This document shows, piece by piece, positions 16,481 to 45,401 of a stretch of DNA of 54,117 nucleotides. The translations under genes were made by a program, and so were the position numbers. The DNA is from a bacterium. Lineage in GTDB: Bacteria > UBP15 > UBA6099. Below the pieces are notes generated by a model that worked only from the letters and a program-made list of their open reading frames with translations, was not told where the DNA came from and did not search any database. The DNA is taken from NCBI GenBank assembly GCA_029564595.1, contig JAKQPS010000156.1, positions 1-54,117 on the forward strand, in the 5' to 3' direction. Every line of letters starts with the position of its first letter. Position 1 is the stretch's first letter.

Positions 16481-16594
16481 CGTCCCCCGCTGGCGCAAAG
16501 CCGTTATTTGTTGCCCGGCGGATAATCAGGCATTTTCCGCCGAAGACGTTGGCGGTCGTCATTCTTCGCGGCAATTCGAGCCGCCGCGTTTATG

Positions 16595-26003: not shown

Positions 26004-27125
26004 TCACATCCGGGCGATTTCCTTGAACGCTTCTATCAGATAATCAACCTGTTCGTCCGTAAAACCGAAGGTAGACATTTTAAACCACCGGGTCTGTCCG
26101 GGCTTCAAGCCTGTGATTCCTCTGTCCGCCAGCGCGGAATGAAGGAAATAGCCGCGCTTGCGACTATTCTCAGCGATGCGGTGGAACAACGGCGTTTCAA
26201 ACCTGATAAGATCGTGGCGCTTCGGTTTCTCGCCCATCTGACGGATTTCGCCCAACGATTCCATAGCTTCCACGAACCTGACGGCTTTGGCCACTTCTGC
26301 GTCCCACCGTTTGACGCGCTCCTTGACTCCGGGCAGAGCCGCCATGAAAGACACTATATTCGCGCCTCTGGCGGTGCAGCCCAGCAGCTCAATATTTTTG
26401 TTCGGATGCGTCAAGGATGTTCTGAACAAGCGTTCGGCCCATTCGCCGTTTGCTCCCATGAAGCCGACCGGACCGCTCGCTGCGAAACTCTTATGCCCTG
26501 AGCCAACCATGAAATCAACGCCGAGCGCGCGTCCGTCCACCGGCATTCTACCCGCCGAATACGCGCAATTCAGAATCAACGGGACGCCCGCGTCCTTGCA
26601 GATTTTCGAGAATTCTGCCGCGTCGTTGAGGTTGCCGTAATCGCCGTCCACGTGCGTAAGCAGGGCCGCCGCCGCGGGCTTTCCTGTTTTCGATTTGCAA
26701 TATTCCAATGTCTCGGCAAACGAATCAGGAGTCACTCGGAAGTCGGGGTCGCCGGTGTTTGTGGATTTGAAAACTTCGAGGCCCGCGCGCTGCGCCGCCA
26801 CGTATGTAGAATAGTGCGCGTTCGCGTCCAACACCGCGCCTCGCCCCGGTTCGGACAGCGTGTGAAATATCGCGAATTTCCCTTCCCTTGCTCCCATCGT
26901 GACTGCGACGCGGTCCATTCCCACAAATTCGGCCAACTCGACCGCGAAACATTTTATGTCCGGCTTTTCGATATCGTGAAGAACGCCCGCGCAACGGTCG
27001 CACACGGAATAACCGTCTGAAAAACGGGCGGCGGCTTTTCTCGCCGCGGCGCTCGCCCTGCCCCCCGTCTGAAGCGGGTTCAGGTTAAGCGCAAGCTCGT
27101 CTATCGCCACTCTTTCGAAACTCAT
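26004..27125 (-). CDS. pscS: O-phosphoseryl-tRNA(Cys):Cys-tRNA synthase (SepCysS)
   Basis: A 373-aa PLP enzyme that converts phosphoseryl-tRNA(Cys) to cysteinyl-tRNA(Cys), the tRNA-dependent cysteine route best known from methanogens. Family signatures are dense: NLNPLQTGG, YSVCDRC, DGDYGNLNDA, YSAGRMPVDG, the PLP lysine K212 in GSGHKSFAASGP, and ELLGCTARGANI. The three cysteines that carry sulfur in characterised enzymes are present as C42, C45 and C250. The partner SepRS is not in the window. The ATG overlaps the stop of a 65-aa gene by four bases (ATGA), so the two are coupled. Use as a general persulfide-dependent cysteine synthase is a less likely alternative. Confidence 0.88.
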   Translation of the reverse strand: MSFERVAIDELALNLNPLQTGGRASAAARKAAARFSDGYSVCDRCAGVLHDIEKPDIKCFAVELAEFVGMDRVAVTMGAREGKFAIFHTLSEPGRGAVLDANAHYSTYVAAQRAGLEVFKSTNTGDPDFRVTPDSFAETLEYCKSKTGKPAAAALLTHVDGDYGNLNDAAEFSKICKDAGVPLILNCAYSAGRMPVDGRALGVDFMVGSGHKSFAASGPVGFMGANGEWAERLFRTSLTHPNKNIELLGCTARGANIVSFMAALPGVKERVKRWDAEVAKAVRFVEAMESLGEIRQMGEKPKRHDLIRFETPLFHRIAENSRKRGYFLHSALADRGITGLKPGQTRWFKMSTFGFTDEQVDYLIEAFKEIARM

Positions 27126-27496: not shown

Positions 27497-28867
27497 ATGA
27501 AATTCAAAGCGTGGTTCCAATGCGTTATGGGCTGCGAAGGCAAATACAGCCTCGGCGAAATTATTTACAAATGCCCGAAGTGCGGCAGCTTGCTTGAAGT
27601 CCAGCACGACATGTCTCTGCTGAAAAGGCGCAAACCTGAAACTTGGATACGGCTGTTCGAAGACAGGTTCAGGCACACCAAATGGCCCTACGGCAGCGGC
27701 GTATGGGGCAAGAAAGAGCTTGTAAACCCTGAAATAGCCGATGAGAACGTGGTCAGCCTTTTTGAAGGAGGCACTAATCTTTTCTGGGCCGACCGGCTAG
27801 GCCGCGAGCTTGGCATGAAAGAGCTTTGGATCAAACAGTGCGGCAACGACCACACCGGCAGTTTTAAGGATCTTGGCATGACCGTTCTTGTCAGCCAAGT
27901 CAAACAGATGATAGCCGACGGAAAAAAGATACCTGCGGTCGCGTGCGCTTCCACAGGGGACACCTCGGCGGCCCTTGCCGCCTTCTGCGCCGCCGCCGGC
28001 ATCAAAGCCATTGTTTTGCTGCCTCGCAACAAGGTTTCCAACGCGCAGTTGATTCAGCCAATCGCAAACAACGCTCTCACGCTTGCTCTCGAAACGGATT
28101 TCGACGGCTGCATGAGAATCGTCCAAGAACTGACTGAAAAAGAAAACATATATCTTGCCAACTCGATGAATTCCCTCCGCATTGAGGGACAAAAAACCGT
28201 CAGCATCGAGCTTACTCAACAGTTCGACTGGGAAGTCCCCGAAGTGATCATCATCCCCGGCGGGAACCTCGGCAACGTTTCGGCTCTCGGAAAAGGTTTT
28301 TTAGAAATGAAAGAACTCGGCATTATAGACGAGCTGCCACAGATAATCTGCGCGCAGGCAGAACGCGCCAATCCTCTGTATCTCAGCTACAAAAAGGGCT
28401 TCAAGGAAATCGAGCCTGTCAAAGCGAAAAAGACTCTCGCGAGCGCTATTCAGATAGGCAATCCCGTGAGCGCGCACAAGGCGATAAGAACGCTTAAACA
28501 GTTTAACGGAGTCGTGGAGCAAGCCACCGAAAGCGAGCTTGCCAACGCGTGCGCCCGCGCCGACAGAACGGGCCTTTTCTGCTGCCCGCACACCGGCGTC
28601 GCTCTCGCCGTGCTGTTCAAGCTAATCGAACAGAAACGCCTCGATCCCCAAGCGCGAACAGTCGTCATATCCACCGCGCACGGCCTGAAATTCACTGACT
28701 TCAAACTGAATTACCACGAAGACAATATTCAAGGCGTGAAGCCTTTGTACCAGAACCTGCCCATACCCGTCTCCGCCGACTTCAAAAAAGTCCGCGATAT
28801 TATCTACAGACAAATTGAGAAAGACTTCGGCAAAACCTCGGGCGGCAAAATCAGGGGGAAACAATAA
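27497..28867 (+). CDS. thrC: Threonine synthase
   Basis: A 456-aa fold-type II PLP enzyme that converts O-phosphohomoserine to threonine. An N-terminal zinc-ribbon-like stretch (CVMGC at residue 9, CPKCGS near 32) precedes the catalytic domain. The PLP lysine is K124 in [31 protein letters not shown] and [15 protein letters not shown] form the phosphate and PLP loops. It is the family branch with the added zinc ribbon found in archaea and many anaerobes. GGGGA precedes the ATG. The next PLP gene follows after 2 bases. Confidence 0.93.
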
Positions 28868-30173: not shown

Positions 30174-33100
30174 TTATTGTTCAATGCAGAGCAAGGTTTC
30201 AGCGGCACAGCCCCCGGTCCATGAACAACCGGAATCGACGGAACATGTCGCTTGTTCAGAATAGAAAGAACAAGCATAAGTGGGGTCTCCGGCGCAACCG
30301 GTCGCCCAAGAACAACCGTGAACTGCGCTGCAGGCGCTCTCATCCATGTAATTCACACAAGGAGCCGGCGTGCCATCGCAAGCGGAGCCGCCAGAGAAGC
30401 TGAACGCACACTCGATATTTGTCTCGCAAGCGCTTTGGCTTGACGCATACATGTAACAATCGGTTGAATCGGCCATCGTGCAATTCATATCCCCGCCGCA
30501 TGCAGGTGCATTGCTTCCGTAATATGAGCATCCTATCGAAGCGTCATCGCAAAGGCTAACGCCCGCATACCATCCGCATAAGCTGCTGTGGGTCTCGCAA
30601 TCAGTTTGAATCGTAAACACCGAGCATTGGAGCGCTTCCGTGAAGCTGTCGCAATCGGATCCCGTCCAGATACACGTCGCTTCAGCGTTGCAAATCGACG
30701 AGCTTGATCCAAACATGCCACATCCTGCCGTGCCGGTGTCCACGCATCCCGGCAAGTTATGGTTATATTCACAATCCGGGTCTGCGTTGCATGCGGACTC
30801 GCCATATCCGTAGTATCCGCATCCGAGCGCAATGTCGCCGCACAAATTAAGTCCAGAGTACCAGTTGCAGAGCGTTCCGTGGTAGCCACAGTCATTCTCA
30901 ATCGTGAACATCGAGCACTGGCTCGCGCTCACCAAGTCGGCGCATGTTGAGCCTGTCCACACGCATTCGGCGTTCACGTTGCATGTCTCGCCGGTTCCGT
31001 AAGTCTCGCAACCGGACGCCACGGATTCGATACAATGATCCGTGTCCCATTCGCAGTTGGGATCCCCCACGCACATCGACTCGTCCATCGGACCGTACTT
31101 GGAGCATCCGGCAGTGTCAAACGGCACACAATGATTATCCGAGTAATTCCACTCGCAGATTCCAGTCTGAGCGTTGCAGTTCGTGTTACTGTCGCCAAAT
31201 TCTCCGCAGCCCGCAGTGCCGTAATCCACACACATATCTGTGTTATGGTTATAATCGCAGTCAACATCCATATTACATTGTTCAACTGTGGCAAATTCGT
31301 AATATCCGCACCCGTAGGTGTTTCCGTCGCATGTCATCAAACCGGCGTACCATTTGCAATCAACGGAATGGTTCTCACAATAAACTTGGTCGATTAACTG
31401 ATTGCAACTTGAGACGCCGCCGAATGTGACGCATTCGCTATTAACATCATCCCAAATACACGCTGAATCCGTGTTGCAAGCTTCCAGAGTTGAGTGTTCA
31501 CCGCACGCTGGGCCGCCTATGTCTTCGACGCATTGATCCACGACCCACGCGCAATTCGCATCCATTCCGCAAGCTGTATCATTCGAGCCGTAAATCCCGC
31601 AGCCTTCCGACTTTCCGCCGCAGATTCCAAGCCCGACATACCAACTGCAATACTGCCCGTGAATCGAGCATTCCGTTTCGTCGATGAACATGGCGCAGTT
31701 GTTTTCGGCGTTTAGCGCGTAACAATTGCTTTCAATGTACACGCATTCCATGTCGGCGTTACAGGTCTCCATAGTCACATATCCGGAGCACTGCAGACCG
31801 GGTTCTTCCGCCATGCAAGTCTGAAGTCCCGAATCCCAGTAGCAATCGTGCGCCGCGCATGCCGTATCGTCGCTTTCGAACATGCCGCACATCATCGGGC
31901 TAAAGTCCAAGCAGCCTTCGCCATAAATACAATTCGGATTAGAGTTACATTCGTACTCAACAATGATTTCGTTGCAAACGACCATTCCGGCAGGTTCGCA
32001 ATAACTCATATCGCCCGTGTGCCAGTTGCATATTCCGCCGCCGCCATAAGCATCGCAATAAGACTGGCTCAGAGCATTGCAAGGCTCTCCTGATCCTTCG
32101 CCTGATTCGCAATAGTCATACCACCAATAACAATACGGCGACTCGTTGCAGGCGTACGGGTCGTTCTGATCCATGCATGGATTTGCTCCGCAGTGATCGC
32201 CGTACCAGAAGCAACCTTCCCAATCACATGTATAGCTGTCGTAGTACTGCGAGCAGACAGCGCCCTGATCTTGGTCGCACATATATCCATTCCAAGCGCA
32301 CATGGCATCTTCATCGCACGCGACTTGGTCAGACGGCCCGTATTTGAAGCAGCCTGCTTCTCCTTGATTGGCGCAGAATTCCTCGCCATAGTACCATTCG
32401 CAATCAGGATCGGAATTGCACGTTGCAGAATCGGTTGATGAATAATAATGACACTGGTGATATGCCTCAGCGCACACATTCGATGCAGAATACCAGTTGC
32501 AGTAATTGCTGTGAGTTTCGCATGAAGCGTCATCCGCGAATGTCGAGCAGTACGAATCATTAGTCATTTCCATACAACTGCCGGGATCGCCAGTGACCCA
32601 CACGCAACCGAAATCCATGTTGCAAGTCGTCGGTTCGCCGTACTGTCCGCACAATAAATTCCATTGAGTGTTGCATACGCCGTAATAAGTGTCCCACACA
32701 CAATATGGCTGATTGTCGCATTCAGCAGACTCATCCCAACCGTATCCTGCGCAACCCGCAGTTCCATAATCCACGCAGAGATTATCGTTAAAACTCCACT
32801 CGCATACGCCCGTTTGGTCTTCACAGATAGAAGAATCATCCGCGAAGGCTCCGCAACCGGCCATTCCTTCAGGAACGCAAGAATAATTGTTGAAATTCCA
32901 TTCGCATCCTAACGAAGAACTGTTGCAAGCGTCAGGCCCGCCGTATTCTTCGTAAGAGGCGCAGTCAACAGCTATCGGGCCGCAACTGCCTCCATAACCA
33001 CTGCCATACCATTCACAGAAGGTTGGATTCTGGTTGCAAGAATATTCAAATCCGTATGCTTCGCATTGACTGCCGTGCAACAGCGTCAGACACTTATCTG

Positions 33101-36100
33101 AGCCATAGCCGTCCCAGTAACAACCGGGCGCGACGTTGCATTCGGTGAGGTCGCTGTAATCCGAGCATGTTCCAGTGTCTTCATCGCACATGTAACCGTT
33201 CCAGTGGTAGCCCACACCGCATTGCGCTACACATAACTGATTGCCCGCGTCCCAGTAACAATCAAACTGGTTGCCGCAATTCCATTCATCTTCGTTGAAT
33301 GCCTCGCAACCCATTCCGCTCTCGAAACATTGGCCTAAGTTGTCAACCCACTCGCAACCGTTGTAATAGCAATCGTTGACGTTATAGGATTGACAACCCA
33401 AATCATCGGTGCAACTGTAGCCGTTCCAGTAGCAGTTTTCATTATTCTCGCACGGGGTTTCAGAGTAATAATCGTTGCAAATTCCGGTGTCCATGTAGCA
33501 GTTATATCCGTCCCAATAACAACCCATGCCGCCGGCGCATGCTGTTTCAGTGTAATTATCCATGCATCCATAACCGCCCATATCGACAATGCACTCATAA
33601 CCATTCCAATGACAATCCATTGTGTTGTCGCATTCATAACTGTCATATATGGACGCGCAGTCGGGAGCCACATAGTCTTCGCATAATGAACTGCCGTAGT
33701 TCCATGAGCAATCTACGTTCATGTTGCACATATTGTCGGAATCCCAGTAGGAGCATGGATACTCCGCTTCATCGACGCACATCGTCCAGAATGAAAGCCA
33801 TTTGCAACCGGGCGCGCCGTCGCATTGGAATCCGTCGCCGTATGCCGAGCAACCGGACGAGCCATATTCGACACATGAGCCTTCCTGATAGTTCCACTCG
33901 CAATCCGTGTCTGACTGACAAGGACCGGAGCCGTAGTTATTATAGTAAGAACATGCATAAGAGACATCGTCGCACCTGTTAAGTCCGGCGTACCAGTTGC
34001 ATCCGGCTTCCGCCTCGCAAGAGCTTCCCTCGTTGAACGCAGCGCAACCGGCATATCCTTCATCGTTGCATAGCGCTATATGGTAATTCCATTCGCACAG
34101 CGGGTCCGCGCTGCCGTTGCACGCCGAGTCGTCGTTGAACGCGCCGCACCCGGCTTCGCCTATGCCGACACAGTAATTGGCGACATAGTTCCATTCGCAG
34201 ACGCCCGTTTGCATCCCGCACATCTGAGAATCCGACCATCCCGCGCAACCCGCCGTCCCTTCTGTCACACACTCGCCAACCTGATAGTTCCACTGGCAGT
34301 CCGGGTCGTTGTTGCAGGAGTAGGCGCTTGCATTGTAGTATGAACAGCCCAATCCAACCGTGTCGCACCTGTCCACATACCATTCGCAATCGAAGTCGCT
34401 TCCGCAACTTGATTCATCGCCGTAGGCGTCGCATCCCACCGTGCCTTCTTCATAACACTTATACGCCCAGAAACTGTATTGGCAACTCGGATCGCTGTTG
34501 CAATCCGCGTCGCTGTCATAAGCTCCGCAGCCTGCCATCCCCAGTTCGACACAGATGTAGTTATTGAAATCATATTCGCAATTTGAATCCAAGTTGCATT
34601 CTTCGTCGTACTCATGAACGCCGCAACCGGCTGCTCCGTACTCGACGCAACTATTCAGCGCGAAACTCCATTCGCAGTTGCCTACATCGTTGTTGCAATT
34701 ATATGAGCCATTGTGAATTCCGCATCCCACCATTGACTCTTCCTGACATTGATTAACGTTATAGTTCCAAGCGCAGATGCTGTCTTCGTCGCACGTGTAA
34801 ATGTCCCCGAAAATTCCGCACCCAGCGGTTCCGATTTCCACGCAGGTCGAATTCGAGTAGTTGTATTCGCAAAGCTCATCGTAATTGCAGTATTCGTCTG
34901 ACGCGTACGACGCGCATCCGATATCCTCAACACATCCGGTTCCAATCCACTTGCAGCCTGAGGTTCCTCCGCATGTCGTCTGATCGTATTGATTCCAGCA
35001 TTCCGACCCTGCTCCCGTCACAACGCACTGGTCCACATCCCACATGCAGAGCATGTCTTTTCCGCACTGCATCTGGCTGGTGTAGTTCCAGCATTCACCG
35101 GGGATGATTTCCAAACAAGCCGTTTCGCCAGCGAACCAGAAGCAACCCGGAGCTGCGTCGCATTCGAGTTCGCCCGGATAATTGTAACATCCGGGGCCGG
35201 GATCGAACGCCTCGCAATATCCGTCGCCATAGGTGTTCCACTGACAGTAAGACGAGTGCAGTTCGCAAATCGACTGATCCCCGCTGAAGAATCCGCAGTT
35301 GCCTCCGTTATCAAGCATTTCGCAACCGCTCACTCCGTCGTAGTAGCAATTGACGTCATTGTTGCAATCAGTTGAGTTTTCATATAATGAGCAGACATCT
35401 CCAAAATCCTGAACGCATTCCGTGGTCATTCCATCCCACATGCAGCCGAACGTGTTGTCGCAATCCATCTGATTGAAAATGTTGAAGCATTCCGCCGGAG
35501 CGAGATCTTCGACGCATATCATCTCGACCTCGTCCCACAAACAACCCTGCTGCATGTTGCACATATTCATGTCCGTATATGTCTGGCAAACTTCTGACAT
35601 TTTAAATACGCACGTGGTCGCCATCATGTTCCATTCGCATCTGTCGTCAGCGACGCAATCCATGTCGTTGATGTGAATATCCGTGCAATCGCCTTCGAGC
35701 GAATAACAATTTCCGGCGTAAGAGTTCCATCCGCAACTCATATCTCCATAACAAGAAGAGGAAGTTGTATAAGCCGCGCAATCGTCGACCACTTCCACGC
35801 ACTCGCTGAAGCCATAATCCCAATTGCAACCGGGGGTTTGATTGCATATATCAGAGTTTACAAACTCTGAGCAAGAATCTCCGCCCATGTCCATCACGCA
35901 CTGGTCGCCATCCCACATGCAGCCCATGGTAGAGTTACATGAAGATTCATCGATCATCATCGGACATGTCGAGCCGGCGTCCTGCACACAGGACGTTCCA
36001 TTCCACACGCAACCCATCATGCCTAAGCATGAGGATTCGTCGGTGTTATTCCAACATTCTGGATTAACAATGTCTTCAATACAGTATGTTCCATCCCACA

Positions 36101-39100
36101 TGCAATCCATTGTCGCATTGCAAGTAGATTCATTAAATATGTTCCAGCACTCCGGGCCGCCCATGTCCATTACGCAGTATGTCCCGTCCCACATGCAGCC
36201 CATAGTGTTCGCGCAATCAACATCGTTGTAGATCATCGAGCAGTCAGGCCCCATGTCTTCAACACAGTATGTCCCGTCCCACATGCAGCCCTGCTGCATC
36301 TCGCACATGCCCATATCCGTGTATGTCGAACATACTTCTGACATTTTGAACACACATGTGTTCGACATCGAATTCCATTCGCACCTTTCATCGGCGACGC
36401 AATCCATGTCGTTGAGGTGAATATCCGTGCAGTCGCCTTCGAGCGAATAGCACGTTCCGGCATAGGCGTTCCATCCGCAACTCATATCTCCATTACAAGA
36501 CGGCATATCCGCATAAGCGGCGCATTCATCAATCACATCCTCGCAAACGCCGAAGTCATAGTCCCAGCTACAACCGGGGGTTTGGTCGCATATTCCAGAA
36601 TTTACGTATTGTGAACATGAACCGCCCATGTCCATCACGCACTGATCGATGTCCCACATACATCCCATCGTGTTCGAGCAGTCAACATCGTTAATTATTT
36701 CGCCGCAAGATATTTCGCCTTGAGCCTCGCCGCAGAAATCCATATTCCATTGACACGCGGGATCCATATTGCATTCTTCATATGTGTGGCCGCCGCAATA
36801 GACCTTTCCGCTGTTTTCCAAACAAACCATCTCGGCAGGATTCCAGTAGCAATCCTCCGTATTGGACATGCACGCGCTCATGTCATAGGAGCCGCAAATG
36901 CCGCCGTCGAAATTACATCTGGACTTCGAGACATCCCAGAAACAATTCGCGTCTGTTTCGCATATTCCGGCATCGCCGTAAATCTCGCAAGGATCAAAGA
37001 CTGAAACGCATTCCATCAATCCGAAATCCGGGTTTGTGCCCTGCGGGCAAACACAGAAGCCCGGCATCATCGGGTCTTCAACCGTTCCGCCCGTGCATTC
37101 TGCCGAACAACCGTCGACGAACGGATCCATAAACGGAGTGTCTCCGCCGCACACGCAATTGCCATCGCTATAAACCATTCCATCGGGGCAAATGCTCATG
37201 CATTCGCCTGCCGCCTGATCCGGATATGTCCCTTCAGGACATATACACATCCCCGGCATTTCCGGATCGTCGGCCGCCGCGCCGCCCGTGCAACTTGCGA
37301 CGCAGCCCTCTGTGAACGGATCCATGAACGGAGTGGAGCCGCCGCATACGCAATTGCCTCCGAGATATTCCATTCCGTCTGGACAAATGCTCATGCATTC
37401 GCCTGCCGCCTGATCCGGATATGTCCCTTCCGGGCACATACACATTCCGGGCATTTCAGGATCATCAGCCACTGTTCCGCCGGTGCAACTTATTTGACAA
37501 CCATATGTGAACGGATCCATGTAAGGAGCCGAGGGGCCGCATACGCAGCCGTTCGGCCCTTCAACCATTCCATCCGGGCACATCATTACGCATTGTTTCA
37601 AAGCAAAATCAGGACCGTAGCCCTGCGGGCAAACACACATCCCGGGCATCTCCGGCGTAGTCACCTGTCCGCCCGAACAATTCGCAGAACAAGCGGCGGT
37701 AAACTGGTCCATCAACGGAGCGTTCGGCCCGCAGACACATTCGCCTTCCGTTCCGACGACCATTCCGACCGGGCAACTGCTGACGCACTGTCCGGTGTTT
37801 ATGTCGAGCGCCGTGCCGGGACCGCATACGCATCTCATATTCGCGGGGTCTCCGATTTTCGGAGCCGGACATGTCGTGTGGCATGTTCCGTAGAACTGAT
37901 CGAGATACTGCCCTGTGGGGCATGTTACTGCTACAGTAGGACAATAGTTAGTGGCAGCGGTTCCGACTCTGCAGGGGCATTGATCCGAAGCGTTCGGAGC
38001 GCCGTCTAGATCGCAGTCGGGATTTGTCATGAGGTCGCATCCCACCGCGTCCGTCCCTTCGGGGCAAAGCCTCTGGAACGTGCCGGATTCAGTGACCACC
38101 ACGCCTGTTTCATTTACGCAGGGATTCGCGTCGTCCACGTTGAGAATGCCGTCCGCGTCGCAGTCTCTGCTCGCAATGGCGAAATCGCATCCGGCGCCAG
38201 CAGTTCCCGTCGGACAAATCGTGGCCGAAACATTGGCGACGCAGGTCTTTGTCGTCGGGTTTAAGGAAGTCCCTATCGGACAGACGCACTGGTTCATGAT
38301 GGGATCAATGACTTGTCCGCCGGAGCAGGTGGCAAAACACCCGTTGACCGACATGTCATAGTACAATCCGGGTTGGCACACGCACACGCGAGTCGCCGGG
38401 TCGCCCACCATTCCGGTCGGGCAACCGGGCAGACAGTATCCTTCCGTGCCGAGAAAACCGGTGGCGCAGTAACATCTGCCTATCGACGAGTCCGCGACCT
38501 GTCCGCCCGTGCACGAGCTTACGCATCCGCCGACCGCCGTGTCAAAATACTGGTCGTCGCCGCACTGCGCGAAGCTCGCGACCATACAGGACTGCATCGT
38601 CTCGCTCCACATCGTGCCGGAAGGACATATGCAGTTTCCTTCAGGGGTCTTTATCTGGCCGCCTACGCACACCGCCGCAGACGGGGTGACCGTCTGATAA
38701 GTTCTGGTTCCGGGGTTGTCCTCAGCCTTGCGCGGGTCGGTTCCTGCCTGAATTTCTTGCAGGTCAGTATAGTTATCTCCATCAGAGTCCTTTTTATATG
38801 GGTCGGTTCCGAGAGCCATTTCCTGAGCGTTCAACAGACCGTCGCCGTCGCAGTCTCCATCGGGCAAGGCCTGAGCGTTGCAGCTCACGGCGCAAAGCGC
38901 GCTGTCGCGCCTGACCGGAGCGGATTCCCATTTGTTCGCGTTGCAGTCAAGACCATTTCTAAGTCCGTCAAAATCGCAGTCCGCGTTCGGGTCGGTCGGA
39001 TCGCACACGCACTTGAGGTCTTCGTCGATAAGGCCGTCGCCGTCGTTGTCGATTCCGTCGGGCGATTCCTCGTCCACGCGTCCGTCGCGGTCGTCGTCGA

Positions 39101-41225
39101 TTCTATTGTCGCATTTCATGCCTATCTGAGCCGCTTGTTCTTCTGTGATGGCATCGCAATAAGCTTGGCTCAACCGGCTGTCGCATTTGGCTCCGATCGC
39201 GGGCGAGTCCTCGTCTATAAGCCCGTCGCCGTCATTGTCCAGACCGTCGACCGGATCCTCGTCGATTCTGCCGTCGCAGTCATTGTCTATTCCGTCTCCG
39301 GGAACCATCGCGGTTCTTGTGCAAACAATTCCGCGAAGCACAATAGCGTTTTCAGCAGGGGTGGATACGGATATGTCGCCGATTCTAGCTCTGACGATGA
39401 GAGGATTGGCGGGACCGCTGAAAATCGTCATTCTGGCCTGAGCGTAATAAGCGTTGGATTCGGTTGATGAACCGGTCTGTCCGCTCGCTCTCGCCGCGGA
39501 AGAGCCGTCTTCCCTCGCCGCAGTCGCTCCGGCGATCGGCATCAGCGTTCTGCTTCCGAGGAAGGTTCCGTTTCCGTCTGTGAACGTCACGGTAAGCGCG
39601 CCGGAGAACGGGGTGGAGGATTTTGCGGTCGCTACCGCTTGAACAGAAGTCTGACCGTTCACCCACACGCCGCTCGGAACCAGCAACACGTCAACATTCT
39701 GAATATTTACTCCCATCGCGGCGGCATTGTTTGTCGCGCCGGAATTGATAATCAATCTTGTCGTCTGTCCGAACTGGTCATTTGCCACGAACTCTATCGG
39801 TTTGGTGCAATCCTGTTGATAGAATCCATCAAGGGAGAATGAACCGTCGGCCCCGATGGTCGCTTTGGGATTTCCCTTGATAGAAGATCCATTAATATAA
39901 ACGTTGGTCCCGGGATTCGTCATACCTGAAATCGGGATCCACGGACACTGCATAAAACCTTCTGTCGGGTTCGATATCTCAAGTTTCGGAGGAGCCACCG
40001 CTTCTATCGCCACCTTGGCTTCCGCCTTGCATGTCCCATCCGAATTTGAACAAATAACTGAAACCGTTGTGTCTCCGGCCGATGCCAGTGTGAATTCCGA
40101 AGTGAACGCCCCGTTCGCGCCTGCCGTGACGGATGTGCCGCTCACAACGCATGTCGCTCCGGCAATCGTTGTTCCTGAAACAGCTACCGTTCCCTTGCTC
40201 AACGGATACGAGCCGCCATCCTCCGGTTTTGACAATTCAGCGAAACATTCGATCTCTTCTTCTTCGTCTTCCGATTCTTCATCATCCGATGTTGCCACGG
40301 CAACCGTGCCGGTGGCTGTTTCAGAACCGGATGCGGCCGGAGGAGCCACGCACACGGAGCCTTCTCCGCAATTCTTGCTGCAACATTCGTCTCCGGCTTT
40401 GCAGGCCGAACCGTTGGGAATGCAGGCGGCTGCCGTCTGGTCTGCCGCTTTCTCAGCGCAAACGCCATCCGCGCAGTTTCCGCTGCAACAGTCTTTGCCC
40501 GTTGTGCAAGCTGCTTCGATAACGCGGCAGCCTCCGCTCTGCATGGCGGATTCTTCGCCTTCGCACTGTCCGTCGACGCACTTATGAGACATGCAGTCTT
40601 CGTCTACTTCGCAAGCGTTCATCTCTTCGTTGGAGACCGGAACCGGGGGAGCCGGAGGCTGGTTCGGCTGAACAACCACCTGCGTGCCGGGAACCGCCAT
40701 GACCGACTGGCCCTGAGACATAACCTCAACCGAGCCTGTCCTTGTCGTGACGCTAGTGGTGTTCTCAGGCGTGTTCTCCATGTCGAACTCGGTTCCGCGA
40801 ACGCCTGCCACCGCGGTCGGAGTGCTAATCGAGAACTCCGAACTCGGGTTGTGCAGTTTCTCGGCCTTCGCCTTGACTTTGCCTGTCGTAAGGTCGAGGT
40901 TCGACGTGACCGTTTTTGTCCTCGGATCAATGTCGATATCCTTAATAGTAAAGTTTGTAAACGGGTTAATCTTCAATGTGTTTGAAGAACTCCACTTAAC
41001 CGTGGCGGATGACTTTGCGCCCGTTTTTATTTGCGTCCCGCTTGGCAGTGACATGTTGACCGTGCCAGCCTGCCACGAGCCTCCGGGCAACATAATCTGC
41101 ACGTCGCCTGTGACGCTCTGCAGCGATGCCGTTACAGGCAACGCTCTTAGATGCGCGGCATAAATCGCCACCGCAAAAATGAAAAGAATCATTACTGGGA
41201 CAAATCTAATCGCCCTTTTACACAT
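30174..41225 (-). CDS. Giant secreted protein: FecR domain, TSP3 calcium repeats and about 71 tandem four-cysteine repeats
   Basis: One uninterrupted frame of 3683 aa. Order: signal peptide (about residues 1-30); FecR domain (about 35-195, with AVAGVRGTEFDM); small Cys-rich EB-like modules (about 205-300, CMSHKCVDGQC); an acidic linker; Ig-like regions (about 335-640); thrombospondin-type-3 calcium repeats (about 640-845, DNDGDGLIDED); EGF/TIL-like modules (about 845-1410). From C1413 to the end come about 71 repeats (my manual count) of about 32 residues, consensus C-x(6-11)-C-x(4-7)-C-x-[WY]-x(3-9)-C, e.g. CNATMDCMWDGTYC. They hold close to 280 cysteines, are rich in Asp, Glu, Asn, Tyr, Trp and Met, and have almost no Lys or Arg. 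No transmembrane anchor or sorting signal is seen at the C-terminus. GGGGG precedes the ATG. Function is unknown; a surface adhesin, coat or metal-binding polymer is possible. The last repeats are degenerate. Confidence 0.92.
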   Translation of the reverse strand: MCKRAIRFVPVMILFIFAVAIYAAHLRALPVTASLQSVTGDVQIMLPGGSWQAGTVNMSLPSGTQIKTGAKSSATVKWSSSNTLKINPFTNFTIKDIDIDPRTKTVTSNLDLTTGKVKAKAEKLHNPSSEFSISTPTAVAGVRGTEFDMENTPENTTSVTTRTGSVEVMSQGQSVMAVPGTQVVVQPNQPPAPPVPVSNEEMNACEVDEDCMSHKCVDGQCEGEESAMQSGGCRVIEAACTTGKDCCSGNCADGVCAEKAADQTAAACIPNGSACKAGDECCSKNCGEGSVCVAPPAASGSETATGTVAVATSDDEESEDEEEEIECFAELSKPEDGGSYPLSKGTVAVSGTTIAGATCVVSGTSVTAGANGAFTSEFTLASAGDTTVSVICSNSDGTCKAEAKVAIEAVAPPKLEISNPTEGFMQCPWIPISGMTNPGTNVYINGSSIKGNPKATIGADGSFSLDGFYQQDCTKPIEFVANDQFGQTTRLIINSGATNNAAAMGVNIQNVDVLLVPSGVWVNGQTSVQAVATAKSSTPFSGALTVTFTDGNGTFLGSRTLMPIAGATAAREDGSSAARASGQTGSSTESNAYYAQARMTIFSGPANPLIVRARIGDISVSTPAENAIVLRGIVCTRTAMVPGDGIDNDCDGRIDEDPVDGLDNDGDGLIDEDSPAIGAKCDSRLSQAYCDAITEEQAAQIGMKCDNRIDDDRDGRVDEESPDGIDNDGDGLIDEDLKCVCDPTDPNADCDFDGLRNGLDCNANKWESAPVRRDSALCAVSCNAQALPDGDCDGDGLLNAQEMALGTDPYKKDSDGDNYTDLQEIQAGTDPRKAEDNPGTRTYQTVTPSAAVCVGGQIKTPEGNCICPSGTMWSETMQSCMVASFAQCGDDQYFDTAVGGCVSSCTGGQVADSSIGRCYCATGFLGTEGYCLPGCPTGMVGDPATRVCVCQPGLYYDMSVNGCFATCSGGQVIDPIMNQCVCPIGTSLNPTTKTCVANVSATICPTGTAGAGCDFAIASRDCDADGILNVDDANPCVNETGVVVTESGTFQRLCPEGTDAVGCDLMTNPDCDLDGAPNASDQCPCRVGTAATNYCPTVAVTCPTGQYLDQFYGTCHTTCPAPKIGDPANMRCVCGPGTALDINTGQCVSSCPVGMVVGTEGECVCGPNAPLMDQFTAACSANCSGGQVTTPEMPGMCVCPQGYGPDFALKQCVMMCPDGMVEGPNGCVCGPSAPYMDPFTYGCQISCTGGTVADDPEMPGMCMCPEGTYPDQAAGECMSICPDGMEYLGGNCVCGGSTPFMDPFTEGCVASCTGGAAADDPEMPGMCICPEGTYPDQAAGECMSICPDGMVYSDGNCVCGGDTPFMDPFVDGCSAECTGGTVEDPMMPGFCVCPQGTNPDFGLMECVSVFDPCEIYGDAGICETDANCFWDVSKSRCNFDGGICGSYDMSACMSNTEDCYWNPAEMVCLENSGKVYCGGHTYEECNMDPACQWNMDFCGEAQGEISCGEIINDVDCSNTMGCMWDIDQCVMDMGGSCSQYVNSGICDQTPGCSWDYDFGVCEDVIDECAAYADMPSCNGDMSCGWNAYAGTCYSLEGDCTDIHLNDMDCVADERCEWNSMSNTCVFKMSEVCSTYTDMGMCEMQQGCMWDGTYCVEDMGPDCSMIYNDVDCANTMGCMWDGTYCVMDMGGPECWNIFNESTCNATMDCMWDGTYCIEDIVNPECWNNTDESSCLGMMGCVWNGTSCVQDAGSTCPMMIDESSCNSTMGCMWDGDQCVMDMGGDSCSEFVNSDICNQTPGCNWDYGFSECVEVVDDCAAYTTSSSCYGDMSCGWNSYAGNCYSLEGDCTDIHINDMDCVADDRCEWNMMATTCVFKMSEVCQTYTDMNMCNMQQGCLWDEVEMICVEDLAPAECFNIFNQMDCDNTFGCMWDGMTTECVQDFGDVCSLYENSTDCNNDVNCYYDGVSGCEMLDNGGNCGFFSGDQSICELHSSYCQWNTYGDGYCEAFDPGPGCYNYPGELECDAAPGCFWFAGETACLEIIPGECWNYTSQMQCGKDMLCMWDVDQCVVTGAGSECWNQYDQTTCGGTSGCKWIGTGCVEDIGCASYASDEYCNYDELCEYNYSNSTCVEIGTAGCGIFGDIYTCDEDSICAWNYNVNQCQEESMVGCGIHNGSYNCNNDVGNCEWSFALNSCVEYGAAGCGVHEYDEECNLDSNCEYDFNNYICVELGMAGCGAYDSDADCNSDPSCQYSFWAYKCYEEGTVGCDAYGDESSCGSDFDCEWYVDRCDTVGLGCSYYNASAYSCNNDPDCQWNYQVGECVTEGTAGCAGWSDSQMCGMQTGVCEWNYVANYCVGIGEAGCGAFNDDSACNGSADPLCEWNYHIALCNDEGYAGCAAFNEGSSCEAEAGCNWYAGLNRCDDVSYACSYYNNYGSGPCQSDTDCEWNYQEGSCVEYGSSGCSAYGDGFQCDGAPGCKWLSFWTMCVDEAEYPCSYWDSDNMCNMNVDCSWNYGSSLCEDYVAPDCASIYDSYECDNTMDCHWNGYECIVDMGGYGCMDNYTETACAGGMGCYWDGYNCYMDTGICNDYYSETPCENNENCYWNGYSCTDDLGCQSYNVNDCYYNGCEWVDNLGQCFESGMGCEAFNEDEWNCGNQFDCYWDAGNQLCVAQCGVGYHWNGYMCDEDTGTCSDYSDLTECNVAPGCYWDGYGSDKCLTLLHGSQCEAYGFEYSCNQNPTFCEWYGSGYGGSCGPIAVDCASYEEYGGPDACNSSSLGCEWNFNNYSCVPEGMAGCGAFADDSSICEDQTGVCEWSFNDNLCVDYGTAGCAGYGWDESAECDNQPYCVWDTYYGVCNTQWNLLCGQYGEPTTCNMDFGCVWVTGDPGSCMEMTNDSYCSTFADDASCETHSNYCNWYSASNVCAEAYHQCHYYSSTDSATCNSDPDCEWYYGEEFCANQGEAGCFKYGPSDQVACDEDAMCAWNGYMCDQDQGAVCSQYYDSYTCDWEGCFWYGDHCGANPCMDQNDPYACNESPYCYWWYDYCESGEGSGEPCNALSQSYCDAYGGGGICNWHTGDMSYCEPAGMVVCNEIIVEYECNSNPNCIYGEGCLDFSPMMCGMFESDDTACAAHDCYWDSGLQTCMAEEPGLQCSGYVTMETCNADMECVYIESNCYALNAENNCAMFIDETECSIHGQYCSWYVGLGICGGKSEGCGIYGSNDTACGMDANCAWVVDQCVEDIGGPACGEHSTLEACNTDSACIWDDVNSECVTFGGVSSCNQLIDQVYCENHSVDCKWYAGLMTCDGNTYGCGYYEFATVEQCNMDVDCDYNHNTDMCVDYGTAGCGEFGDSNTNCNAQTGICEWNYSDNHCVPFDTAGCSKYGPMDESMCVGDPNCEWDTDHCIESVASGCETYGTGETCNVNAECVWTGSTCADLVSASQCSMFTIENDCGYHGTLCNWYSGLNLCGDIALGCGYYGYGESACNADPDCEYNHNLPGCVDTGTAGCGMFGSSSSICNAEATCIWTGSDCDSFTEALQCSVFTIQTDCETHSSLCGWYAGVSLCDDASIGCSYYGSNAPACGGDMNCTMADSTDCYMYASSQSACETNIECAFSFSGGSACDGTPAPCVNYMDESACSAVHGCSWATGCAGDPTYACSFYSEQATCSVDSGCSWTGGCAAETLLCIEQ
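35540..36660 (-). repeat. Eight-unit segmental duplication inside the giant gene
   Basis: Repeats 4-8 and 12-16 of the four-cysteine array are near copies at both protein and DNA level. Matching DNA, such as that beginning at 36394 and at 35650, is displaced by 744 bases, equal to eight repeat units (248 residues). Shared peptides include GDMSCGWN, CYSLEGDCTDIH and CVFKMSEVC. A second, shorter duplication of 195 bases (65 residues) lies in the EGF/TIL-like part, around 37216 and 37411. The array has thus grown by unequal exchange of blocks. Confidence 0.8.
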
Positions 41226-41501: not shown

Positions 41502-41519
41502 ATGTGATAGTTGTCACAT
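41502..41519. promoter_or_regulatory. CRP-type binding site, distal, perfect consensus
   Basis: A-TGTGA-TAGTTG-TCACA-T is a perfect CRP consensus palindrome, including the flanking A/T. Its centre is 23 bases from the proximal site, about two helical turns, so both dimers would lie on the same face of the DNA. It is centred near -69 from the predicted start of the giant gene and lies 28 bases beyond the stop codon of the adjacent CRP-family gene. Confidence 0.8.
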
Positions 41520-41546: not shown

Positions 41547-42227
41547 CTAATAGACTCTGCTTTTCAGTCCGTCCGCGCTTTTTATGATAAAGGAATTTTT
41601 CTTTATATTTATATACCCCATAATCTCCAACGTTTTTAACGCTCGCGTAAGCGTCTCCCTAGTGGTTCCAACGAGACTCGCCAATTCTGTCCTTTTGTGT
41701 GTCACCTTAATCTCAATACCCTCCGCCGAACTAATCCCATCTTCTCTTGCCATGTCGAGAAGAATCCTAGCCAACCTTCCGCAAACATCCAGAAAAACCA
41801 AGCTCTCCATGCTCTCGTTGGCATTCCTCAAACGTCTTCCCAGCACTCTTAACACTTTAATTGCTATATCAGGATGGCTCGTGAATTGTCTAATGAAGTC
41901 TTCTCTTCCGAGCGTCACCACTTCCGTCGGCTCAATGGCTACGACAGACGCCGATCTCGGTTCGCCGTCTATCAAGGACAGTTCGCCGAAGAATTCCTGA
42001 GGTTGAAGAATTCCGACAATGAATTCCTTGCCCTCATCGTCTGCCAGCACGACTTTCACCCTTCCTGACACAATCGAAAAAAACGAATCGCCTTCATCCT
42101 GCTTATGAATGATGATTTCATCTTTATCGTATTTTTTATATGTGGAAGCTTTGCTGAGAGCTTCCAGTTCTTTGGCAGTCAGATCGGAGAAAAGAGGGAC
42201 CTTCTCAAAAATTTCCTTTGTGGTCAT
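41547..42227 (-). CDS. CRP-family cAMP-responsive transcription regulator
   Basis: A 226-aa regulator. The N-terminal cyclic-nucleotide domain has the phosphate-binding cassette G81-E82-L83 to R91-S92, the two residues that hold the cAMP phosphate in E. coli CRP. The C-terminal winged helix carries a recognition helix RETLTRALKTLE with R190, E191 and R195 in the places of CRP R180, E181 and R185, which read TGTGA. FNR-type N-terminal cysteines are absent. The start at 42227 follows GGAGG; the upstream extension is discarded. The nearest matching sites lie just past its own 3' end, before the giant gene. An adenylate cyclase gene is divergent to it. Confidence 0.9.
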   Translation of the reverse strand: MTTKEIFEKVPLFSDLTAKELEALSKASTYKKYDKDEIIIHKQDEGDSFFSIVSGRVKVVLADDEGKEFIVGILQPQEFFGELSLIDGEPRSASVVAIEPTEVVTLGREDFIRQFTSHPDIAIKVLRVLGRRLRNANESMESLVFLDVCGRLARILLDMAREDGISSAEGIEIKVTHKRTELASLVGTTRETLTRALKTLEIMGYINIKKNSFIIKSADGLKSRVY

Positions 42228-42572
42228 ATCAAGAAATCCTCCAGAGACCGCGCGGCATTCGCGCATAACAAATTGTAAATTTAATTATGGAATAAGTATT
42301 AAGTAAAATCGTATCACACATTATTTTTATTATACACAATTTCAAACAAATTGGAATAAGTGATTTTAGAAAGCTGCCGGCAGTCGCGACTTGCGTCAAT
42401 GAACGCCACTAAATTGAAATAAACAGAGCTATTAATGAAATATTACCGCTCTTCTGTTAAAATTATGTCCACTAATTCTGCGGTCAGCAGTAAACCGCGG
42501 CTGTAGGCGTTTATTCTTTGCCTTGCCGAGGAACCGGTGTCGCCGCAGATTTACTGAAGCGGAGAAAGCGCT
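42228..42572. promoter_or_regulatory. Divergent control region between crp-like and cyclase genes
   Basis: 345 AT-rich bases without a gene. On the minus strand a perfect TATAAT (42334-42329) could serve the crp-like gene, though no good -35 is spaced from it. A single TCACA half-site at 42314-42318 lies just downstream of it, where autoregulation could occur, but the other half is not conserved. GGAATAAGT occurs twice as a direct repeat (42289 and 42353). For the cyclase on the plus strand I see only a possible TTGAAA at 42414. Confidence 0.4.
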
Positions 42573-45401
42573 GTGGCGCGAAGCCTTCTGGATATCGACA
42601 ATCTAATAAACGAGTCTACGGAACTCGCCGCCTTGGGTCGGCACGATGACGCCGCTTTAGGTTTTCGGCAAGCTCTCTCAGGACTTGAGGACAGATTCCG
42701 CGGGGCCGCAAGCCAGTTGCCTGTGGATATAGTAGAGCGGCGCTTCAGACTTTTGTTGCGCCTAGCGCGAGCGCATATCGACGGAGACTCGCCTCTAAAA
42801 GCCATACCTTGCGCCACCGAAGCTATGGCCATCGCGCGCGGTCCGTTCTCCGACTATCCTGAATTTTTTCTAAGAGCGGCGTTCGAACTTGGATCAAGCT
42901 ATCTTGCTTCTGGAGACACAGCGGCGGCGAAGTCAATAATCACTGAAGCGGCAAAGATTTCAAGATCTACATCGGCCGACTCATCGGCCCTTCCACAAAT
43001 GTTATCGGCGTTGGCGGTAGGAAGACTTTTTGCGGCCGAGGAAAAAACCGCTCCCGCTATCGCGGCTTTCGAGCATGGAGTTAAATCGTCTCCTGAACCG
43101 ACGGACGTTGAGACAGCGTTAGTGAAATCCGACCTGTTGCTATCGCTCGGCGACGCCGTCTCCCGCCTGTCTATGGCTGAGAAAGCTTTTCAATCATACA
43201 TAGAGGCGGTTTCAACTCTTAGGAATTCGGGGATTGAAGCGATAAAGAACAACAAATCCCTTGACGCGGCTGTTCTGTTGGCGTCGGCCAGAAAGATTTT
43301 TCCGAAACTGCCCAACACTGCAGAATGTGTCGCCGCGCGGATTGATTCAGACATAGCCCTTGCATCCATATTGGATATGCGCGGCAGGTGGGAAGAGGCG
43401 GACAAGCTGTGCCGTGAAGCCGCAGAGCTGCTTCAACGCACCGGAGTGTCCCATCCCCGCGGAGCAGCCCTAGCGCGCATTGGAATGGGCGCTTTCCTGA
43501 CTCACATGAAAAAATATGAAGATGCCGCGGTTGAACTTTCTCGCGCTGTTGAAATCGCGGAAAAAAACAACGATGTTTTCGCCCTTTGCGTCGCGCAATA
43601 CAATCTCGGACTTGCCCTTTCAAAGCGTGGATCGGATGAAAAAGGAACAAAACTGTTCGAGGAAGCGTTGGACATGTTGTCCACTTCCCTGCCCGACGAC
43701 GCGGACGCAAAGAGATTGATGGCTTTAATCAGGAATCAGTTAGGTTTTATCAGCGCGCGCGCGCGGCGATTCGACGCCGCCGTCGAACATTTCCAACAGA
43801 GCATCGAGTTGCTTAGGAACAGACCGGCGGACACCGCCATCGGCGAGACGTATCGCTTGTTGGGCGAAATCTATTCCGAACGCGGCCAGAACATGCAGAG
43901 CGAGCGGGCCTTGAAGAAAGCTCTGAAAACTTTCGAGGACGCTGGAGCCGTTTACGAGACCGCCCGCACATTCAGAAGCATCGGAGTCAACTTCCTGTCT
44001 ACAGGCGAATTGGACAAAGCAATTTACTTTCTTGACGAGAGCATCAGCTTGCTCGAAAAGCTTGGAATCGAAGCAGAGCTTCCCATGGCGTACAGCACGA
44101 AAGCTAAAGCGTGCGTGATGATGGAAGAGTACGCGCAGGCGGAATCTCTTTTCACCAAGGACTTCAATATTGCCAAGAAATCGGAGAACAAGCATTCGCT
44201 GGCGTTTTCGTATTTTCATCTGGCAAGGATAAGACGGCTGTTGGGAAGGTCTCACACCGCCGAAGATTTCCTCAAACGCAGCTTGGACCTTTTCAATGAG
44301 GTGAACAACAGGGAGATGGCGGCGCTGACCATGCTTGAAATGGCGTTGTGCGCCTCCGCCCGAAGAGACACTAAAACAGCCACCGACCTCTGCGCCAAAG
44401 CGCAGTCTGTTTTCGAGGCGTCAAAGAATCAGGAGAATATCGCCTGCGAACTTCTTACGCGAGGCATAGTGCTGAGAGAAGCAAAACGCCGCCAGATGGC
44501 GCGGCGGTGCTATGAAGACTGCATCAGAATCCATGAAAAGCTTAATCCTGCGGCTCTCGAACTGGCGGAGGCGCATTTTGAGTTCGCCATGTTCTGGCGA
44601 GAGGAGAGCGACAAAAAATCGGCGACCCGCCATATCCTGAACGCTATAGAAATAACTGAAAAACTCGGTCTCACAAAAAAACTCAGCAAGTATCTGGCCG
44701 CCCTGAACGATATTAACCCGGAAGCGGGAGCGGGAATGAGGCTCTCCCGCATCATGGGCAAGTCCGGCGCGGAACAGATGATAAAAACGAAGGACGAGGA
44801 CAAACTTACCGTAGAACAGAAAAATCTCACGGTGTTCTTTACCGATATACGAGGTTTCACTACAATATCGGAGACCTTGTCGCTTGAGGAGTTGAACTCG
44901 TTTCTTAATGATTTCTACACCAGCGTCACCCAAGTGATTATCAGGTTCGGGGGGCTTATCAACAAGTTCATAGGCGATGAGGTCATGGCGCTGTTCAATA
45001 TCGACGGCGCTCTGGAGGATCACCCCGCGCGCGCGCTGAAAGCGGCCGTGGAGCTTGTCAGAACTATGGGCGAAGTCAACATGATTCGCGAGCGGCGCGG
45101 CGAGACTCCCATTCATCTGGGAATCGGAGTGAACTGCGGAGACGTTCTAATCGGCACTTTCGGTTCGTCTCTCAGGCAGGATTACACCGCCATCGGGGAC
45201 ACTGTGAACACTGCCGCGCGACTGCAAGCCAAGGCGGGACCCGGCGAAATTGTTGTGAGCCAGAAGGTTTACAACGCGGCTTCGGATGTCATCGCCGAAG
45301 CGGAGGACATGGGAGAAATACCTTTAAAAGGAAAAGACCGCGCCGCCAGATTATGGAAAATCAAGGCGCTTAAAGAAGAGGCGACACGGGAGGGGCAATA
45401 A
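42573..45401 (+). CDS. TPR-repeat protein with C-terminal class III adenylate cyclase domain
   Basis: A 942-aa soluble protein. Residues about 20-720 are helical tetratricopeptide-type repeats (for example AQYNLGLALSKRG and TYRLLGEIYSERGQ). Residues about 750-935 form a class III nucleotide cyclase. Metal-binding aspartates are D758 (FFTDIRGFT) and D802 (IGDEVMA). The adenine-specifying pair is K798 and D870, and N879 and R883 are the transition-state residues. The site is therefore complete and of ATP type, predicting cAMP output. The TPR part probably senses a protein partner. The start is GTG behind GGAGAAAG. The efp gene begins one base after the stop. The divergent neighbour is a CRP-family regulator. 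Confidence 0.92.
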   Translation: MARSLLDIDNLINESTELAALGRHDDAALGFRQALSGLEDRFRGAASQLPVDIVERRFRLLLRLARAHIDGDSPLKAIPCATEAMAIARGPFSDYPEFFLRAAFELGSSYLASGDTAAAKSIITEAAKISRSTSADSSALPQMLSALAVGRLFAAEEKTAPAIAAFEHGVKSSPEPTDVETALVKSDLLLSLGDAVSRLSMAEKAFQSYIEAVSTLRNSGIEAIKNNKSLDAAVLLASARKIFPKLPNTAECVAARIDSDIALASILDMRGRWEEADKLCREAAELLQRTGVSHPRGAALARIGMGAFLTHMKKYEDAAVELSRAVEIAEKNNDVFALCVAQYNLGLALSKRGSDEKGTKLFEEALDMLSTSLPDDADAKRLMALIRNQLGFISARARRFDAAVEHFQQSIELLRNRPADTAIGETYRLLGEIYSERGQNMQSERALKKALKTFEDAGAVYETARTFRSIGVNFLSTGELDKAIYFLDESISLLEKLGIEAELPMAYSTKAKACVMMEEYAQAESLFTKDFNIAKKSENKHSLAFSYFHLARIRRLLGRSHTAEDFLKRSLDLFNEVNNREMAALTMLEMALCASARRDTKTATDLCAKAQSVFEASKNQENIACELLTRGIVLREAKRRQMARRCYEDCIRIHEKLNPAALELAEAHFEFAMFWREESDKKSATRHILNAIEITEKLGLTKKLSKYLAALNDINPEAGAGMRLSRIMGKSGAEQMIKTKDEDKLTVEQKNLTVFFTDIRGFTTISETLSLEELNSFLNDFYTSVTQVIIRFGGLINKFIGDEVMALFNIDGALEDHPARALKAAVELVRTMGEVNMIRERRGETPIHLGIGVNCGDVLIGTFGSSLRQDYTAIGDTVNTAARLQAKAGPGEIVVSQKVYNAASDVIAEAEDMGEIPLKGKDRAARLWKIKALKEEATREGQ

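What the first reader, a model, noticed from the sequence alone, without database searches (positions are those of the whole stretch)
30174..41225. 3683-residue secreted protein ending in about 71 tandem four-cysteine C-x-W repeats
The frame is unbroken over 11 kb. From residue 1413 onward it is built of a repeat of about 32 residues with four cysteines and a C-x-[WY] core. I do not recognise this as a named bacterial repeat family. It is reminiscent of a minimal PSI-like knot but lacks that domain's full cysteine set. The array is strongly acidic and nearly free of Lys and Arg, with about 280 cysteines in the repeats alone. FecR, TSP3 calcium repeats and EGF/TIL-like modules precede it. Such an architecture suggests a long disulfide- or metal-stabilised surface fibre or coat.
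Basis: partly seen in the sequence, partly recalled or inferred. Interest (0 to 1): 0.88.

Follow-up and report, generated by a model that had tools for sequence, protein, structure and literature searches.

The report
Giant bacterial protein of PSI-like repeats
An uncultured anaerobic bacterium encodes a very large secreted protein whose last 2,270 residues are about 70 copies of a tiny, disulfide-rich fold otherwise best known from animal receptors and the surface coats of ciliates and trypanosomes, so it is probably a stiff surface fibre or coat.

Summary
One unbroken 3683-aa frame runs on the minus strand (30174-41225). From residue 1413 it is 70-73 copies of C-x8-C-x5-C-x-[WYF]-x4/6-C, with 286 Cys and Asp+Glu 371 against Lys+Arg 18. 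The array has no CC, CxC or CxxC (shuffles give about 27-36 of each). The gene is under purifying selection (dN/dS about 0.16 in the array), has orthologues and paralogues in related MAGs, and the unit recurs in giant proteins of two distant lineages. Four-repeat segments reach Pfam thresholds for PSI/plexin repeat (28.8 bits) and Paramecium surface antigen (22.2; 55.9 for a relative), and single segments touch the VSG C-terminal domain; controls keeping only Cys and the core aromatic lose this. AlphaFold2 gives a confident fold (pLDDT 94) whose nearest solved structures are PSI domains, missing half the PSI cysteines. Best reading: an exported acidic rod or coat of mini-PSI beads, each with two crossed disulfides. 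Upstream lie a Crp gene and the window's only perfect CRP box, both conserved in a relative. Downstream lie genes for tRNA-dependent cysteine synthesis. Surface location, disulfides and function are inferred, not shown.

The parts
30174..41225 (-). Giant secreted protein, 3683 aa
   Evidence: Unbroken ORF; dN/dS 0.03-0.2 against the ADurb.Bin236 orthologue
41154..41225 (-). Hydrophobic N-terminal stretch, probable signal peptide (residues 1-24)
   Evidence: Read from the sequence; no signal-peptide predictor available
40725..41033 (-). FecR domain (residues 65-167)
   Evidence: PF04773 49-58 bits, cut-off 24; 98% identical to the orthologue over residues 31-200
40344..40613 (-). Small cysteine clusters with CCSGNC-type motifs (residues 205-294)
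   Evidence: Read from the sequence; no Pfam hit
40014..40205 (-). Ig-like stretch (Big_6, residues 341-404)
   Evidence: 25 bits, below the 27.6 cut-off
38721..39305 (-). DxDNDGDGxxDED calcium-type / MopE-type / TSP3 motifs (residues 641-835)
   Evidence: PF18884 29.8 bits over cut-off; PF11617 18.2 bits, below
36990..38678 (-). Cys-rich CPxGM..CVCG repeats, EGF/TIL-like by eye (residues 850-1412)
   Evidence: Read from the sequence; no Pfam model matched
30177..36989 (-). Array of about 70 four-Cys mini-PSI units (residues 1413-3683)
33957..34355 (-). Four units modelled by AlphaFold2
   Evidence: pLDDT 93.8, pTM 0.77; PDB neighbours are PSI domains
41503..41518 (.). Perfect CRP box TGTGA-N6-TCACA between crp and the giant gene
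   Evidence: Only match in 54 kb, 0.01 expected; conserved at the same place in L051
41547..42266 (-). Crp/Fnr-family regulator
   Evidence: cNMP_binding 88.9 bits, HTH_Crp_2 55.5; PRK11753 CRP model 134.7 bits, below its 266 cut-off
42573..45401 (+). TPR protein with C-terminal adenylate/guanylate cyclase domain
   Evidence: Guanylate_cyc 91.3 bits, TPR_12 139.6; ORF of similar size at the same place in L051
26004..27125 (-). SepCysS, Sep-tRNA:Cys-tRNA synthase
   Evidence: TIGR02539 504 bits, cut-off 365; a SepSecS-family orthologue lies at the same place in ADurb.Bin236 (L052)
27497..28867 (+). Threonine-synthase-like PALP enzyme
   Evidence: PF00291 200 bits; TIGR00260 229 bits
28870..30090 (+). 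Cys/Met metabolism PLP enzyme (cystathionine gamma-synthase / methionine gamma-lyase family)
   Evidence: PF01053 452 bits; convergent with the giant gene

Best explanation
The gene makes an exported structural protein. A conserved N-terminal part (FecR, Ig-like and calcium-type modules) lies nearer the cell. The 2270-residue array is a semi-rigid, acidic rod of about 70 mini-PSI beads. Each bead is two short helices plus a beta hairpin, locked by two crossed disulfides (Cys1-Cys3, Cys2-Cys4) around the C-x-W core. Oxidation after export, by the VKOR/DsbA-type system present in the genome, would fold it. It then serves as a protease-resistant surface fibre or coat, with a more variable C-terminal end exposed outermost. 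Expression is probably set by cAMP-Crp through the CRP box upstream. Shown: ORF, array, conservation, predicted fold, CRP box, oxidative-folding genes. Inferred: export, surface location, disulfide pairing, coat or fibre role, regulation.
For: Predicted fold of four units pLDDT 93.8, pTM 0.77. Foldseek against PDB: nearly all leading hits are plexin/semaphorin PSI domains, 22 residues at 0.4 A for Sema2b. Pfam segments over the gathering score: PSI 28.8/23.1 and Paramecium_SA 22.2/21.2; 55.9 for the G005 relative; no such hit in ten shuffles that keep Cys and the core aromatic. All four Cys present in 227 of 227 complete HMM-aligned units. No CC, CxC or CxxC. VKOR 85 bits and DsbA 54 bits in the genome, both over cut-off. 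dN/dS 0.03-0.10 in the N-terminal part, about 0.16 in the array, 0.21 at the C-terminus. Lineage-specific duplication of one unit type in ADurb.Bin236. CRP box and Crp-family gene upstream, with an ORF of matching size and place in ADurb.Bin236.
Against: Foldseek E-values are all above 0.1 because the unit is about 30 residues. No known outer-membrane anchor, sortase, T9SS or autotransporter signal was found, so the export route and attachment are unknown. Pfam finds nothing when the whole array is scanned at once. The first structure model (A1) was only middling (pLDDT 72.9, pTM 0.32). No proteomic or imaging evidence.
Confidence: 0.6

Rival explanations
1. It is a specific adhesin or receptor: the array is a stalk, and binding to a partner cell or surface (through the stalk or the variable C-terminal end) is the function, rather than a passive coat.
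For: Long modular extracellular architecture with FecR and Ig-like modules; the N-terminal part matches the FecR region of the Leptospira adhesin Lsa33 at 68.5 bits, far below that model's 420 cut-off; the C-terminal end is the most divergent part.
Against: No lectin or other named binding domain at the C-terminus; constraint across the array is not concentrated in one site; the array shares only fold, not known binding residues, with PSI.
Confidence: 0.25
2. A metal-binding or electron-carrying protein: the four cysteines of each unit hold a metal ion or Fe-S cluster (metallothionein-like).
For: Very high Cys content in an anaerobe; acidic residues; MopE-type motif upstream.
Against: No CC, CxC or CxxC among 286 Cys where about 27-36 of each would occur by chance; predicted fold is PSI-like, whose cysteines form disulfides; disulfide-forming genes present.
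Confidence: 0.05
3. A sulfur or cysteine store, which would explain the neighbouring cysteine-synthesis genes.
For: SepCysS, PALP and a Cys/Met enzyme lie next to it in two genomes.
Against: Sequence between the cysteines is under purifying selection with a conserved aromatic core and fold, which a store would not need; the G005 array has different neighbours; exported cysteine is hard to recover.
Confidence: 0.05
4. The array is a misplaced eukaryotic (ciliate) gene: contamination, or a recent transfer from ciliates.
For: Similarity to the Paramecium surface antigen domain.
Against: Sits in a 54-kb contig of bacterial genes; orthologues with the same neighbours in an independent MAG; FecR N-terminus; the same unit in two further bacterial lineages. 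Recent transfer is also not supported: domain scores are near threshold, not close.
Confidence: 0.04

Closest known systems
PSI domain / plexin repeat (PF01437)
   Same: C-x-W core; PSI domains dominate the Foldseek hits; one window segment over the gathering score (28.8 against 23.1 bits). The spacing Cys1 to Cys2 (9) and, in short units, Cys3 to Cys4 (7) equals RON PSI cysteines 527-536 and 545-552, which belong to the pairs 527-545 and 536-552 (PMC3405059).
   Different: Four instead of eight cysteines, about 30 instead of about 50 residues, and about 70 in tandem in a bacterium; PSI usually occurs as single hinge domains in animal receptors.
Paramecium/Tetrahymena surface (immobilisation) antigens (PF01508, Paramecium_SA)
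   Same: Giant surface proteins (average about 2,200 aa, PMC9788069) with more than 10% Cys in a fixed periodicity, often with internal tandem repeats; PF01508 spans two of the present units; segments at 22.2 bits, relative L057 at 55.9 (cut-off 21.2).
   Different: Ciliate antigens are GPI-anchored and belong to a switching serotype system; here there is a FecR N-terminus, no GPI system, and no evidence of switching. Domain scores are at threshold only.
Trypanosome VSG C-terminal domain (PF10659)
   Same: Four conserved cysteines and a conserved aromatic in one small structured region (PMC12226131); profile match E 0.04 to 2jwg; 2 of 36 two-unit members match PF10659, best E 2e-4; 5m4t among the Foldseek hits.
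   Different: One or two copies next to a GPI anchor, not a long array; statistics are marginal.
FecR-domain surface proteins (e.g. Leptospira Lsa33, LipL45)
   Same: FecR domain near the N-terminus.
   Different: Those proteins are a few hundred residues; no Cys array; scores are far below their model cut-offs.

Membership tests
PSI domain (PF01437) | Profile match over the gathering score | tested here: met
   28.8 bits (cut-off 23.1) for window:35595-35975; others 15-17 or none; 12 of 36 two-unit members match at E<=1
PSI domain (PF01437) | Eight cysteines, four disulfides | tested here: not met
   Four Cys per unit, invariant in 227 of 227 complete units
PSI domain (PF01437) | PSI fold core | tested here: inconclusive
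   Confident model; top PDB neighbours are PSI, down to 0.4 A over 22 residues, but E>0.1
Paramecium_SA (PF01508) | Profile match over the gathering score | tested here: met
   22.2 bits in the window, 55.9 (whole protein) in L057 (cut-off 21.2); whole array: none; genome-wide scan: none over cut-off
Paramecium_SA (PF01508) | GPI-anchored ciliate surface protein with serotype switching | tested here: not met
   Bacterial gene among bacterial genes; GPI anchoring is a eukaryotic pathway (general knowledge)
VSG C-terminal domain (PF10659) | Profile match | tested here: inconclusive
   2 of 36 members, best E 2e-4; PDB profile search E 0.04
FecR domain (PF04773) | Profile match over the gathering score | tested here: met
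   49-58 bits, cut-off 24
Metallothionein / metal-cluster protein | CxC, CC or CxxC ligand motifs | tested here: not met
   0 of each in the array
PSI / Paramecium_SA / VSG-CTD alike | Cysteines form disulfides, pairing 1-3 and 2-4 | not testable with these tools
   No model coordinates; inferred from register with RON PSI

The most novel reading that the evidence does not exclude
The bacterial four-Cys unit, the PSI domain, the ciliate surface-antigen repeat and the trypanosome VSG C-terminal module are branches of one old mini-PSI superfamily. This lineage would have built a whole coat from it, in a cAMP-Crp controlled locus placed beside tRNA-dependent cysteine synthesis that helps feed it.
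Probability: 0.2. Interest if true: 0.82.

Novelty: new variant of a known kind. Interest (0 to 1): 0.62.

Why it matters
If right, a bacterium uses the same kind of tiny disulfide module, in similar giant cysteine-rich arrays, that ciliates use for their surface coats, so the coats could be compared as one structural type. The sequences gathered here touch three eukaryotic families (PSI, Paramecium_SA, VSG-CTD) that are separate entries in the Pfam library used, and give a test of whether they share ancestry. The array also gives a regular, predicted-to-fold protein rod from an anaerobe, and a rare case in which a very cysteine-hungry gene sits next to SepCysS.

Tried and rejected
PF01508 searched genome-wide gave nothing over cut-off: single domains are too weak at genome scale, so these negatives say little. 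phmmer of one segment against PDB returned designed SAKe kelch propellers at E 1e-11: rejected, because these are sums over six identical copies, no single stretch passes, and the cysteines are not conserved in them. A single-unit profile found nothing in PDB. A viral-contig scan with A1 could not be run (no conserved stretch); one with L057 found nothing. Plasmids: no match. Viral fold library: scattered weak giant-virus hits, all E>0.04, not pursued. Looking for paired loss of cysteines to infer pairing failed because no complete aligned unit lacks one. Rfam and tRNA scans of the window: nothing. Sigma-70 and terminator scans: no excess over shuffles. Searches for a paper on such bacterial arrays found none.

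Full report
Observation. The frame is real: 3683 codons on the minus strand, 30174-41225. The last 2271 residues hold 286 cysteines, 371 Asp+Glu and only 18 Lys+Arg. The unit is C-x8-C-x5-C-x-[WYF]-x4/6-C followed by 5-9 residues; 70 units by pattern, 73 by an HMM made from the units. The pattern occurs 86 times with overlaps against at most 7 in 500 shuffles, and CC, CxC and CxxC are all absent although about 36, 32 and 27 would be expected.

It is a gene under selection. Against the orthologue in bacterium ADurb.Bin236 (L048/L051, found), dN/dS is 0.03-0.10 in the N-terminal modules, about 0.16 over the aligned array and 0.21 at the C-terminal end. FecR-region identity is 98%, the C-terminal end 60%. 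The array is largely collinear, but one unit type (GPDCSMIYNDVDCANTMGCMWDGTYC) has been multiplied in ADurb.Bin236. So the N-terminal part is fixed and the array turns over, more so towards the C-terminus.

Family. The window's genome and ADurb.Bin236 (G003) each have two such genes. Type A is the window gene; in G003 it is split between L051 and L052. Type B is complete in G003 (L050, 1852 aa between stops) and split over C48 and C9 in the window's own genome. The splits are inferred from matching neighbours and contig ends. Among 386 sampled genomes, the four-unit profile at E<=1e-8 found only this order: 5 genomes, counting the window's own. At E<=1e-3 two other lineages appeared, G030 and G097; reading them showed 10 to 27 pattern matches per protein, in giant Cys-rich proteins of 2239 to 4626 aa. 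A two-unit profile that includes those sequences matches G030 at 1e-12 but neither of the two other genomes held from its phylum (G030 is in the training set, so that score is not independent).

Fold. A 30-row alignment of four-unit segments gave an AlphaFold2 model with pLDDT 93.8 and pTM 0.77: two short helices and a hairpin, four times. A second starting sequence gave the same order of elements at lower confidence (72.9). Foldseek against PDB lists mostly PSI domains of plexins and semaphorins, including 22 residues at 0.4 A with Sema2b; VSG C-terminal domain 5m4t also appears. All E-values exceed 0.1, as expected for such a small unit.

Sequence relatives. Scanned whole, the array matches no Pfam family. 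In four-unit segments it does: PSI 28.8 bits (cut-off 23.1) and Paramecium_SA 22.2 (cut-off 21.2). A relative from another family of the order scores 55.9 with Paramecium_SA, summed over repeats. Over 30 segments, 15 matched Paramecium_SA and 10 PSI at E<=10; over 36 two-unit segments at E<=1, 12 PSI, 9 Paramecium_SA and 2 VSG C-terminal. Ten shuffled segments that kept every cysteine and the aromatic after it matched none of these, so cysteine spacing alone is not the cause.

Disulfides rather than metal. RON PSI pairs Cys527-545, 536-552, 548-558 and 533-567 (PMC3405059). The present unit keeps the spacing of 527-536 (9) and 545-552 (7 in short units) and the C-x-W, so its cysteines correspond to 527, 536, 545 and 552; pairing should be 1-3 and 2-4. 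The genome has VKOR and DsbA homologues over cut-off, so it can probably oxidise exported thiols.

Locus. Upstream on the same strand is a Crp-family gene (41547-42266), and divergent from it a TPR-cyclase (42573-45401). Between crp and the giant gene is TGTGATAGTTGTCACA at 41503-41518, the only perfect CRP box in 54 kb (0.01 expected). The ADurb.Bin236 locus has one exact box too, at the same place with a different spacer. Downstream are a Cys/Met enzyme, a PALP enzyme and SepCysS (TIGR02539, 504 bits, cut-off 365); the same Pfam families in the same order flank the gene's 3' end in ADurb.Bin236. The genome also encodes SepRS (454 bits, cut-off 381) and ordinary CysRS. ADurb.Bin236 was already noted for a non-canonical SepRS and a SepCysSn-SepCysS pair (PMC5424206). 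A link between cysteine supply and this protein is suggested by position only; the G005 array has other neighbours.

Verdict. Best read as an exported, acidic, disulfide-locked rod of mini-PSI beads forming a surface fibre or coat (0.6 overall; the fold class is surer than the surface role). The family is a new bacterial variant of a known structural kind, not a categorically new fold. The nearest named relative is an unclassified bacterium in NCBI taxonomy; I did not establish the phylum name.

Noticed in passing
window 26004-27125 (-); G000:C143:18181-19644; G000:C137:4157-5044: The genome encodes SepCysS and SepRS, both over their model cut-offs, together with an ordinary CysRS: RNA-dependent cysteine synthesis in a bacterium beside the standard route. 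SepRS over cut-off is also found in G003, G004 and G005.
   Followed up: partly
window 41503-41518 and L051 8743-8758: Perfect CRP box between crp and the giant gene, conserved in position but with a different spacer, suggesting cAMP control.
   Followed up: yes
G000:C48 and G000:C9 (L053, L054); L050 9887-15442: A second paralogous Cys-array gene; in the window's genome it is broken at contig ends, probably by assembly of the repeats, so repeat numbers there are unknown.
   Followed up: partly
L119 1840-15717; L120 947-7663; L121 3-9647: Giant Cys-rich proteins of two other bacterial lineages carry the same four-Cys units; those of G097 begin with lipoprotein-like signals (by eye).
   Followed up: partly
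window 14249-16498 (-): 749-aa protein with weak beta-propeller, Sortilin-like, YCF48 and TIG matches and also a marginal BKACE hit (26.1 bits, cut-off 24.8); an odd mix that may be chance.
   Followed up: no
window 22622-25249 (-): 875-aa protein with LptC at the N-terminus and LptA/LptD_N at the C-terminus, apparently a fused LPS transport bridge, implying a two-membrane cell.
   Followed up: no
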